Assembly: GCA_028688055.1 (NCBI GenBank)
Contig: JAQTYZ010000004.1
Location: 1 to 33,020, forward strand
Direction: 5' to 3'
DNA: 33,020 nt
Origin: Patescibacteria group bacterium
Lineage (GTDB): Bacteria; Patescibacteriota; Patescibacteriia; Buchananbacterales; UBA6539
Shown: in pieces, positions 9,906-23,749 of the stretch
How positions within the stretch are numbered: the first letter of the stretch is position 1
How the letters are laid out: each line of letters begins with the position of its first letter
Notes under the pieces: model-generated
Told to the model about the DNA's origin: nothing
The model's database searches: none
Seen by the model: the letters and a program-made list of their open reading frames with translations, nothing else
Program-made: the position numbers and the translations under genes

Positions 9906-12197
9906 TTATTGAAATGTTTCATTTTCATCTTCGTCAACCTCATCATCGGGCGAATCACTATCTAATTCACCTTCATTGGTGTCGCTAATTATATCACTGC
10001 TTAACTGATTTATCAACACGTCTCGAGGCTTGGCGCCATCGCCGGGTCCAATAATTCCTTGAGCTTCAAGTAAATCCAAAATCCTCGCCGCTCGGGCATA
10101 ACCAATCCTTAATCGCCGCTGAAGTAATGAGGCCGATGCTTTACCGGCGCGAATTATTACATCTTTAGCTTCAGGTAATAAGGCATCGGAATCACCGTCG
10201 TCGACGCCAGTATGACTATCGCCAAATCCGGTGATCTGCTGTTTTTCGACAACTTCTTCAATATATTCCGGCTCCGCCCGATCCTTGAGATAATCAATCA
10301 CTTTCTTAATTTCATCATCAGACGAGAACGCACCCTGCAATCGCTTGGGCTTAGAAATTTCGGCCGAGATAAACAACATATCACCACGGCCCAATAATTT
10401 TTCCGCGCCGGACATATCTAAAATTGTTCGTGAATCAATTAATGAGGCCACGGAAAAAGCGATACGGCAAGTAATGTTAGCTTTAATCAATCCGGTGATA
10501 ACATCAACGGACGGACGCTGAGTTGCTAATACCAAATGAATTCCCACGGCACGTGACATCTGAGCTAATCTGACAATGGCCGCTTCGACCTCCGGTCCGG
10601 CCGACGCCATTAAATCAGCTAATTCGTCAATAATAATTACAATGTACGACATCTTGTCTTCGGTCTCGGCATTATAACTAGCGATATTTCGATGACGCGC
10701 GGCCGACAAAACATCAAAGCGTCGCTCCATTTCGCGAATTGACCAACGCAACGCATTGATAGTTTTTTTAACATCCGTAATAACTGGCGTTAACAAGTGC
10801 GGTATCCCATTATACATCGGCAACTCAACACGCTTCGGGTCTACCATAATAAATTTTAAATCGCCAGGGCCATTTTGGAATAATAAGCTCAAAATAACAG
10901 AATTAATACAGACGCTCTTGCCTGAGCCAGTCGATCCAGCAATTAATAAGTGAGGCATCTTATCCAAAGGTGACAGCCATGGTTTACCCATAACATCCTT
11001 GCCCAGCGCAATGGACAGACTCGAAGACCTCGTACGAAAGGAATCACTGTCCAATATTTCTTTGAGCGGCACAATAGCCGTCGCTTGGTTGGGAACTTCA
11101 ATACCCACCAATGATCGGCCAGGAATCGGGGCTTCGACTCTAATCGGGTGCGCGGCCAAGGCCAAGGCTAAATTATCGCCCAAGCCGGTAATCCGCGAAA
11201 GTTTTACTCCCTCAGCCGGCTTTAAAGTATACTGGGTAACGGTCGGACCAACTTGAGCATCTCCCATTTCAACATTGATCCCAAAATTTTGTAAAGTTTT
11301 TTCAATAATTAATTTGTTGGCTCTAAGATCACCGCCTTTGGGAACGGTCGTTTTACCGTCAAGTAAATCAAGGGGTAAGTCAATTTTGGTTCGCTTAAAT
11401 TTAGTAACGCCCATATCCAACTGCTTCGCCTCCTGTTCCTCTTCGGTCGGTTCAGGCAATTTATACCCGCCGCCCGCCTGCTCAACTTCAACTGGTTTTT
11501 GAGAAAATATCGGCTTGACCATTTTCTCATCTTCATCGTCGGCGTCTTCCTGTTCATCTTCTTCATCACCAGTTTCGTATTGGCGCTCCCGTTCAGCTTG
11601 AATCTTTTTGACCCTTCGGCTCGCCATTGAATCGTTTAAACCATTCCAATATTGTGAAAACCATTCTTTCTTTTCAAGCAATGAATGTAAAGAAACTTCA
11701 AACAAAAGCATAAAGCCAATAACAGCAATGGCCAACGATACCACTAACGAAGCCCAAAAACCCATAAACTTCAAAAATGGCCAGGCCAAAATTACCCCAA
11801 CGTAGCCGCCGCCTTCGCCGAGCCCAGCCGCCGCAATAACATCAGCGGAATGAAAAATTATATTAACTAAAGCATTGTAGCCTAAAACCAAAATAATAAA
11901 CCCCAGGGTATTGGAAAAATGATAATCATATTTGGCCGGCCGCAATAAAAAATAGCCAATTAATATCAACAAGAATGGCAAAAACCAACGATTGACGCCA
12001 AAGGTTATTTTTAAAAAACCATTGACGTAAACCCCGAGTGTGCCGGCTAAATCAAAAAGGCTCAGCAATGACAAAACTCCGAAAGTAATCAACGCCACAA
12101 TCATAATTCCGCGCTTGGTCTGTGGTGACATTTCGAGTTTTGGCGAGCCGAGATCTAGGTCACGAAGACTACCAAATTTTCTCCTTTTTCTTGCCAT
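9906..12197 (-). CDS. ftsK: DNA translocase FtsK/SpoIIIE
   Basis: N-terminal TM segments, PHLLIAGSTGSGKSVCINSVILSLL, IDELADLM, HLVLATQRPSVDVITGLIKANI, C-terminal gamma winged helix. Start taken as MARKRRKFG (12197). Confidence 0.95.
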   Translation of the reverse strand: MARKRRKFGSLRDLDLGSPKLEMSPQTKRGIMIVALITFGVLSLLSLFDLAGTLGVYVNGFLKITFGVNRWFLPFLLILIGYFLLRPAKYDYHFSNTLGFIILVLGYNALVNIIFHSADVIAAAGLGEGGGYVGVILAWPFLKFMGFWASLVVSLAIAVIGFMLLFEVSLHSLLEKKEWFSQYWNGLNDSMASRRVKKIQAERERQYETGDEEDEQEDADDEDEKMVKPIFSQKPVEVEQAGGGYKLPEPTEEEQEAKQLDMGVTKFKRTKIDLPLDLLDGKTTVPKGGDLRANKLIIEKTLQNFGINVEMGDAQVGPTVTQYTLKPAEGVKLSRITGLGDNLALALAAHPIRVEAPIPGRSLVGIEVPNQATAIVPLKEILDSDSFRTRSSSLSIALGKDVMGKPWLSPLDKMPHLLIAGSTGSGKSVCINSVILSLLFQNGPGDLKFIMVDPKRVELPMYNGIPHLLTPVITDVKKTINALRWSIREMERRFDVLSAARHRNIASYNAETEDKMSYIVIIIDELADLMASAGPEVEAAIVRLAQMSRAVGIHLVLATQRPSVDVITGLIKANITCRIAFSVASLIDSRTILDMSGAEKLLGRGDMLFISAEISKPKRLQGAFSSDDEIKKVIDYLKDRAEPEYIEEVVEKQQITGFGDSHTGVDDGDSDALLPEAKDVIIRAGKASASLLQRRLRIGYARAARILDLLEAQGIIGPGDGAKPRDVLINQLSSDIISDTNEGELDSDSPDDEVDEDENETFQ

Positions 12198-12242
12198 ATA
12201 ACTTTTATATTTTAACACATTTTTGCCGCGGGGTAAATTCTA

Positions 12243-12270
12243 AGCCCCGCCCCCTGGTGGGGGCGGGGCT
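12243..12270. repeat. GC-only palindrome between rpoC and ftsK (12-bp arms)
   Basis: AGCCCCGCCCCC-TGGT-GGGGGCGGGGCT. No U-tract on either side. Confidence 0.8.
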
Positions 12271-22399: not shown

Positions 22400-22451
22400 A
22401 ATTTATACTGCTTCCATTGTATCGCACTTAGGTACTTTAACCAAGCCACTA

Positions 22452-22480
22452 TTGACTAAATCAGTACAGTACATTAGGAT
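22452..22480 (+). promoter_or_regulatory. Sigma70 promoter of the ncRNA
   Basis: TTGACT (22452-22457) - 17 nt - TAGGAT (22475-22480). Predicted TSS is G22487. Confidence 0.72.
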
Positions 22481-22486
22481 AAAAAA

Positions 22487-22625
22487 GCTCAGAACTGTGT
22501 CTGCCATGGTTAATCGTCGCTTTCCCCGCAGCCCCCCCCGTAGCGGCGATACCTGCTGACACGCCGCAGAGTTCTGGGTACCTGAGGACGAGCTGACCCA
22601 AGACGGCTCGTCCTCCTCCTTTTTT
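22487..22625 (+). ncRNA. Candidate free-standing small structured RNA with a C-rich loop
   Basis: Closing stem GCTCAGAACT (22487-22496)/AGTTCTGGGT (22570-22579), inner GTGTC (22497-22501)/GACAC (22558-22562), apical ATCGTCGC (22513-22520)/GCGGCGAT (22543-22550), C-rich loop containing CCCCCCCC (22532-22539), intrinsic terminator. No convincing ORF. Confidence 0.75.
22584..22625 (+). terminator. Intrinsic terminator of the ncRNA
   Basis: GAGGACGAGC-TGACCCAAGACG-GCTCGTCCTC, then CTCCTTTTTT: perfect 10-bp stem and U-tract. Confidence 0.82.
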
Positions 22626-22686
22626 CAAAATCCACTGGGCATAATTATCATAAAAAAATCAAGCTTAAAAAAATCACAAACACACC

Positions 22687-22712
22687 AAAAGACAGCCATA
22701 GGGCTGTCTTTT
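22687..22712 (-). terminator. Intrinsic terminator downstream of the NIF3-like gene
   Basis: AAAAGACAGCC-ATAG-GGCTGTCTTTT. Symmetric, so usable on both strands. Confidence 0.75.
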
Positions 22713-22729
22713 TATTTATAGTTTCTGGT

Positions 22730-23749
22730 TTATCTTTTTCGCTTCTTGGCTAGTTTAACTTTCGGTTTTAACTTGCTAACAATTTTTTTAGGCACTGGCC
22801 GTTTCGCGCGCTTGGCCCGACTGACTCGAATCAAACCCGAGCATGGAATCACTTCAATACCCCGCTTCTCCAATTCATCCAAAAACAAATTCATACCCAG
22901 CGAGTCGGAAGATATATGGCCAGCGATGACGACATTAACGTGATTTTTTTCCGCTTCTTTTTTTCGATCTTCGCTCATGTGCATACCGACTATGGTGCCG
23001 ATACCGGCTTGCGACATTTTTTCGTACATACCAACCGCGCCTTCAGTGCCACCGGTAATTTCAGTCAGTACCATTTTACCAACAGAATTGTCGCGATTGC
23101 CGACAAAAATTTTTGGTCCTGACTTCTGTTCAATCGCTTTAAGGTATTCCGGTATTTCTTCCAATGCATCAATCACTTCGCCGACAAATTCCGGCTTAGC
23201 TTTCTTTAAATGTTGATCCAAAAAATTCGCCACTAAATTATCACAAGTCGTGTGCATGCACATCAAACCAATGTTAAAAAGTTCAGCGGCATCGACGCCG
23301 CGATAATGATTAATTGGTGAAATACCGCGAGCCACTTCGGAAATACGTTCCTTAGTCAATGCTTCAGCAATATTAATTGGCACACCGTACATTGCCAGCA
23401 CTTCCGCCTGTAGATGCATCACGTCATGTAAATCAGCCAACGCACTGCCAACCGGGTGGTGGGCGATTACCAAATCAACACCCAGTTCTTTGGCCATCAA
23501 AATTTCCGCCGGGCTAATATCAATACCGGCCATCACTTTTTTAATTTCCCGTTTGGGGTCAACAAACATCCGGCTGTCCGAGAAAGGGTTATGCAACCGC
23601 TCTTTATCAAACCGCTGTTTTTCCTTGGCTGACAACTTTTCGAATTTTTCATTAACGCGCTTAAGCAATTTTCTGACGTGCTTTTCGCCGCGTAAATCTG
23701 CCGCTATACCCATCTTAATATTGAGCTCGTAGATGTCTTGAATTTTCAT
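22730..23749 (-). CDS. NIF3-like metal-binding protein (GTP cyclohydrolase I type 2 / DUF34 family)
   Basis: AGIDISPAEILMAKELGVDLVIAHHPVG, GGTEGAVGMYEKMSQAGIGTIVGMHM, VVIAGHISSDSLGMN. Lys/Arg-rich C-terminal tail. Confidence 0.78.
   Translation of the reverse strand: MKIQDIYELNIKMGIAADLRGEKHVRKLLKRVNEKFEKLSAKEKQRFDKERLHNPFSDSRMFVDPKREIKKVMAGIDISPAEILMAKELGVDLVIAHHPVGSALADLHDVMHLQAEVLAMYGVPINIAEALTKERISEVARGISPINHYRGVDAAELFNIGLMCMHTTCDNLVANFLDQHLKKAKPEFVGEVIDALEEIPEYLKAIEQKSGPKIFVGNRDNSVGKMVLTEITGGTEGAVGMYEKMSQAGIGTIVGMHMSEDRKKEAEKNHVNVVIAGHISSDSLGMNLFLDELEKRGIEVIPCSGLIRVSRAKRAKRPVPKKIVSKLKPKVKLAKKRKR

What the first reader, a model, noticed from the sequence alone, without database searches (positions are those of the whole stretch)
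22452..22625. Free-standing ~140-nt structured ncRNA with a C8 loop, own promoter and terminator
Sequence: a plus-strand unit between minus-strand ruvA and the NIF3-like gene has TTGACT-N17-TAGGAT, then a 10-bp stem GCTCAGAACT/AGTTCTGGGT beginning exactly at the predicted TSS, then GTGTC/GACAC, an apical ATCGTCGC/GCGGCGAT stem and a 22-nt loop TTTCCCCGCAGCCCCCCCCGTA, then a perfect 10-bp intrinsic terminator. No plausible ORF. I do not recognise a known family (no SRP GGAAGCAG signature; not tmRNA or RNase P).

Inference: an unpaired C-rich loop could act as an anti-Shine-Dalgarno sRNA, like the C-rich loop sRNAs of Firmicutes. The native strong-SD genes here (purH, purC, orf136) would be natural candidate targets. 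A divergent 6S RNA is an alternative.
Basis: partly seen in the sequence, partly recalled or inferred. Interest (0 to 1): 0.75.

Follow-up and report, generated by a model that had tools for sequence, protein, structure and literature searches.

The report
Orphan hairpin RNA gene, function unproven
A short stretch between two genes of a tiny-genome bacterium looks like a real, self-contained gene for a folded RNA of about 135 bases, but no relative of it turned up in any of the collections searched, so what it does can only be guessed.

Summary
The fold is strand-specific: plus z -5.2, minus z -0.6. The hairpin alone is modest (z -2.96); most of the signal is the terminator (z -6.0), and the promoter match alone is at chance level. 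In the whole 1.1 Mb genome the unit is the most GC-rich of 47 gene-free terminator units; 5S rRNA ranks second. I think it is a genuine free-standing non-coding RNA gene (about 0.75).

It matches no Rfam family. 6S RNA is undetected and unlike. SRP RNA is excluded, because this lineage has no detectable SRP GTPase or SRP RNA. The tmRNA lies elsewhere. No homologue was found in 381 genomes of the class, 84,980 GTDB species genomes (exact motif) or viral contigs, so covariation, the decisive test, cannot be run.

The anti-Shine-Dalgarno idea is not supported as a general mechanism: few genes use an SD, and the loop pairs with start regions less than shuffled loops do. A base-pairing sRNA with one or a few targets is my leading but weak guess. 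Ordinary in kind: an orphan candidate sRNA.

The parts
22452..22480 (+). promoter-like TTGACT-N17-TAGGAT of the RNA gene
   Evidence: 9 of 12 consensus positions; at chance level by itself, suggestive by position
22487..22579 (+). imperfect long hairpin (29 pairs): terminal stem 22487-22496/22570-22579, GTGTC/GACAC, apical stem 22513-22521/22542-22550
   Evidence: plus strand z -2.96 (0 of 200 shuffles), minus strand z 0.06
22522..22541 (+). 20-nt unpaired apical loop TTCCCCGCAGCCCCCCCCGT containing C8
   Evidence: one of only 8 C or G runs of 7 or more in the genome
22584..22625 (+). intrinsic terminator: 10-12 bp stem then CTCCTTTTTT; the tail happens to read like an anti-SD
   Evidence: z -6.0
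22417..22445 (-). possible divergent ruvA promoter TTGGTT-N17-TACAAT, back to back with the RNA promoter
   Evidence: read from sequence; 8 of 12 consensus positions, below the scanner's threshold; weak
22687..22712 (-). terminator of the NIF3-like gene, which bounds the unit on its far side
   Evidence: inverted repeat that can act on both strands
22461..22628 (-). 55-codon open frame (TTG start) across the unit, judged spurious
   Evidence: no Pfam match; length and score within the range of shuffles

Best explanation
A lineage-specific, independently transcribed small non-coding RNA gene of about 135 nt in a Candidate-Phyla-Radiation-type genome. It starts at about 22487, ends in its own terminator at about 22620-22625, and lies between the divergent ruvA gene and the 3' end of the NIF3-like gene. 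Shown by sequence: a strand-specific fold, a strong terminator, no credible ORF, GC content like a structured RNA, single copy. Inferred: it is transcribed, and it acts as a trans-acting base-pairing sRNA whose rigid stem presents the C-rich loop to a small number of G-rich mRNA sites.
For: Strand-specific folding. Strongest GC signal of 47 gene-free terminator units in the genome, with 5S rRNA second. Terminator z -6.0. Promoter-like hexamers 6 nt before the stem. No coding signal beyond chance. Single copy. The C8 loop is predicted fully unpaired. G-rich complementary sites exist in the genome, for example a G8 loop at G000:C13:130319 and -16.8 kcal/mol with the purH start region.
Against: No homologue anywhere searched, so no covariation. 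The loop is not enriched for pairing with start regions; it does worse than shuffled loops. SD use is sparse. No expression data. The hairpin alone is only z -2.96.
Confidence: 0.4

Rival explanations
1. A structural RNA that binds a protein (for example RNA polymerase or another RNA-binding protein) and works by sequestration or as a scaffold, with the loop as a protein site rather than an antisense seed.
For: Long closed hairpin with 5' and 3' ends of the hairpin paired. Loop shows no preference for start regions. Housekeeping-like GC content. No 6S is recognised in this genome, so a substitute would be free to exist.
Against: No central bubble as in 6S; only 93 nt of hairpin; no match to 6S, SRP or tmRNA models; no conservation, whereas housekeeping RNAs are normally conserved in a family.
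Confidence: 0.2
2. A recently arisen or decaying transcription unit in a spacer that turns over quickly; expressed perhaps, but without a selected function of its own beyond terminating transcription.
For: The NIF3-ruvA spacer holds different cargo in every relative that keeps the synteny: an S23-like ORF in G003, a minus-strand gene plus an unrelated GC-rich unit in G002, a methyltransferase-like ORF in G007 (gene names here are my reading, not family searches). The sequence is unique to this genome.
Against: A strand-specific fold with promoter and terminator in register is more than random drift would keep.
Confidence: 0.25
3. A small protein gene on the minus strand (55 codons, or 46 from a TTG after GGAGG) between NIF3 and ruvA.
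For: Open frame across the unit; hexamer score 0.12, at about the 7th percentile of real gene pieces; GGAGGAGG ahead of a TTG.
Against: 73% of shuffles have an open frame of at least 46 codons and about 9% of shuffles also score this high; tRNA genes give equal or higher scores; no Pfam or phage-record match; the strand asymmetry of folding favours the plus strand.
Confidence: 0.06
4. A very divergent 6S RNA (sigma-factor decoy).
For: Hairpin with closing stem; RF00013 finds no 6S elsewhere in this genome.
Against: Too short; no large central bubble; RF00013 gives one sub-threshold match in 144 class genomes, so the class may simply lack 6S.
Confidence: 0.05

Closest known systems
C-rich-loop sRNAs of Firmicutes (for example RoxS/RsaE, IsrR)
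   Same: Small intrinsically terminated RNA with an unpaired C-rich loop that could pair with G-rich mRNA sites.
   Different: No Rfam match; the seed is C8 rather than UCCC, which is the motif as I recall it; the host genome uses few SDs; no enrichment for start-region pairing.
6S RNA (RF00013)
   Same: Free-standing, hairpin-dominated RNA.
   Different: About 135 nt with a narrow asymmetric bulge instead of a large central bubble; no model match.
Bacterial SRP RNA (RF00169, RF01854)
   Same: Short single hairpin gene.
   Different: No GGAA-type apical loop or helix 8 motif, no model match, and the lineage has no detectable SRP GTPase.

Membership tests
Firmicutes-type C-rich-loop anti-SD sRNA | unpaired C-rich loop in an intrinsically terminated sRNA | tested here: met
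Firmicutes-type C-rich-loop anti-SD sRNA | complementarity concentrated at ribosome binding sites | tested here: not met
   115 strong start-region partners against 145-219 for 8 shuffled loops; 265 for in-gene control windows
Firmicutes-type C-rich-loop anti-SD sRNA | sequence or structure match to RsaE/RoxS or another listed sRNA family | tested here: not met
6S RNA | match to RF00013 | tested here: not met
6S RNA | large central bubble in a long closed hairpin of about 180 nt | tested here: not met
   one 7-nt one-sided bulge and small internal loops in a 93-nt hairpin
6S RNA | binds RNA polymerase and templates product RNA | not testable with these tools
   needs biochemistry
SRP RNA | match to RF00169 or RF01854 and helix 8 motif | tested here: not met
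SRP RNA | Ffh partner encoded in the genome | tested here: not met
   PF00448 finds nothing in this genome although all 14 control genomes ring; motif scans empty
tmRNA | match to RF00023 | tested here: not met
   the genome's tmRNA is elsewhere, G000:C8:22969-23353
structured ncRNA in general | covarying base pairs in homologues | tested here: inconclusive
   no homologues found, so nothing to count

The most novel reading that the evidence does not exclude
The founding member of a new sRNA family, restricted to this genus, that regulates one or a few mRNAs through a C8 loop to G-tract contact (for example with the G8 loop at G000:C13:130319 or the start of purH) in a bacterium with little SD-led translation.
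Probability: 0.25. Interest if true: 0.5.

Novelty: new member of a known kind. Interest (0 to 1): 0.27.

Why it matters
My searches of the paper library turned up no description of regulatory RNAs in these reduced bacteria. A clean, bounded candidate gives a defined target for transcript mapping, and with SRP RNA excluded and 6S undetected it stands out from the usual housekeeping RNAs. Until homologues or transcripts are found it remains one orphan candidate among many.

Tried and rejected
Rfam at gathering and relaxed thresholds: only chance matches, mostly to the neighbouring terminator. Synteny with ruvA and NIF3 in relatives: the gene order is kept in some, but no homologous RNA. The GC-rich unit in the same spot of G002 looked promising, but it shares no sequence, folds as well on the other strand and has no scored promoter, so I do not count it as a homologue. 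The blastn match in G049 (E 0.08) and the exact motif match in a Polyangiaceae contig are taken as chance. Single-sequence covariance model over 381 class genomes: only itself. SRP, 6S and tmRNA identities rejected. A short plus-strand frame (17-18 codons) in the hairpin and the minus-strand frame were rejected as chance. General anti-SD action rejected.

Full report
Observation. The plus strand carries TTGACT-N17-TAGGAT and then, 6 nt later, a hairpin of 93 nt and a terminator. The predicted fold of 22487-22625 is -58.4 kcal/mol, z -5.45, with none of 200 shuffles as stable. Splitting it shows where the signal lies: hairpin alone z -2.96, terminator alone z -6.03. The reverse strand is at chance (z 0.06 for the hairpin, -0.57 for the unit), because several stem pairs are G-U wobbles that break on the other strand. 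That asymmetry is the best single argument that the plus strand is the functional RNA. The promoter match is at chance level by count (4 found, 3.7 expected); only its position speaks for it.

Rank in the genome. I read the whole 1,104,768-base genome in stretches; 8,437 bases of it are withheld and read N. Many intergenic windows fold better than this unit by z-score, most of them inverted repeats, tRNAs or terminators, so the fold alone is not exceptional. I then listed intrinsic terminators preceded by at least 90 gene-free bases: 47 of 358 qualified. This unit had the highest upstream GC (0.62 in a 41% GC genome); the second was 5S rRNA, recognised by eye. I take this as good evidence for a structured RNA gene. 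A minus-strand open frame of 55 codons exists, but 726 of 1000 shuffles have one of 46 codons or more, and its coding score is reached by about 9% of shuffles and by many tRNA genes.

Relatives. The unit is single copy. blastn in 54 relatives gave no credible match (the one at E 0.08 is unrelated). A covariance model from the single sequence found only itself in 381 genomes of the class; the stricter filters used there can lose weak matches. Exact motif scans of 84,980 GTDB genomes and of viral contigs gave one unrelated hit and none; phage and plasmid records gave chance hits. The neighbours are conserved: NIF3-like (64-80% identity in relatives where it is found) and ruvA. The spacer between them changes cargo in each relative. 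No homologue means no covariation test, which is the main limit of this report.

Identity. Rfam: nothing. 6S: none in this genome, and one sub-threshold match in 144 class genomes. SRP RNA: neither model finds one in this genome or 17 relatives (one sub-threshold match, E 0.24, in G008), while 10-13 of 14 control genomes ring. The SRP GTPase family PF00448 is likewise missing from this genome and most relatives, while all 14 controls ring. So the SRP appears lost in this lineage and this RNA is very unlikely to be its RNA; absence of SRP subunits in many CPR bacteria has been reported (PMC8080830). The tmRNA model works well here, so missing matches are not a general failure of the search.

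Mechanism. SD-like motifs precede only 11% of genes against 7% in a control stretch, although my simple start choice will understate this. The loop finds 115 strong partners among 969 start regions, fewer than each of eight shuffled loops (145-219), and 265 among in-gene controls. Inside the window only purH and orf136 have a clear SD; purH scores -16.8 kcal/mol, helped by GGGAAAG after its start codon, and the 3' tail CUCCUUUUUU of the RNA is itself anti-SD-like. These are leads, not evidence. A base-pairing sRNA with few targets remains my first guess because a rigid stem displaying an unpaired C8 loop suits it, ahead of a protein-binding RNA or a unit without selected function.

Verdict. 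Real unit, probably a real ncRNA gene (about 0.75); no known family; mechanism open. It is an orphan candidate of a known kind, of modest interest until relatives or transcripts are found.

Noticed in passing
G000 and 17 relatives: No SRP RNA above threshold and, in most genomes, no SRP54-type GTPase (Ffh/FtsY) in this genome or its family, order and class relatives, while control genomes ring. SRP loss in many CPR bacteria has been mentioned in print (PMC8080830).
   Followed up: partly
22400-22730 and L016, L017, L020, L021: The spacer between NIF3-like and ruvA carries different cargo in each relative (this RNA, an S23-like ORF, a methyltransferase-like ORF, other genes), like a small insertion hotspot.
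   Followed up: partly
L016 2550-2760 (minus strand; G002): A GC-rich structured unit sits at the same place in the nearest relative but shares no sequence and is not strand-specific in folding.
   Followed up: partly
G000:C13:130319: A G8 run in the loop of a small hairpin between convergent genes, perfectly complementary to the C8 loop of this RNA.
   Followed up: partly
G000:C2:164134-164253 and G000:C2:165115-165234 (minus strand): Two nearby terminators share the same motif, a hairpin ending CAGGAGAAGACATC followed by a C-rich terminator stem, one of them after tRNA-His.
   Followed up: no
G000:C8:22969-23353: tmRNA found by the Rfam model (116.6 bits) but missed by ARAGORN in this genome.
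   Followed up: no
12219-12260 (minus strand): G-rich hairpin GCGGGG/CCCCGC directly before the ftsK-like gene 9906-12218, after rpoC; strongest in-window partner of the C8 loop (-26.5 kcal/mol) but itself probably folded.
   Followed up: no
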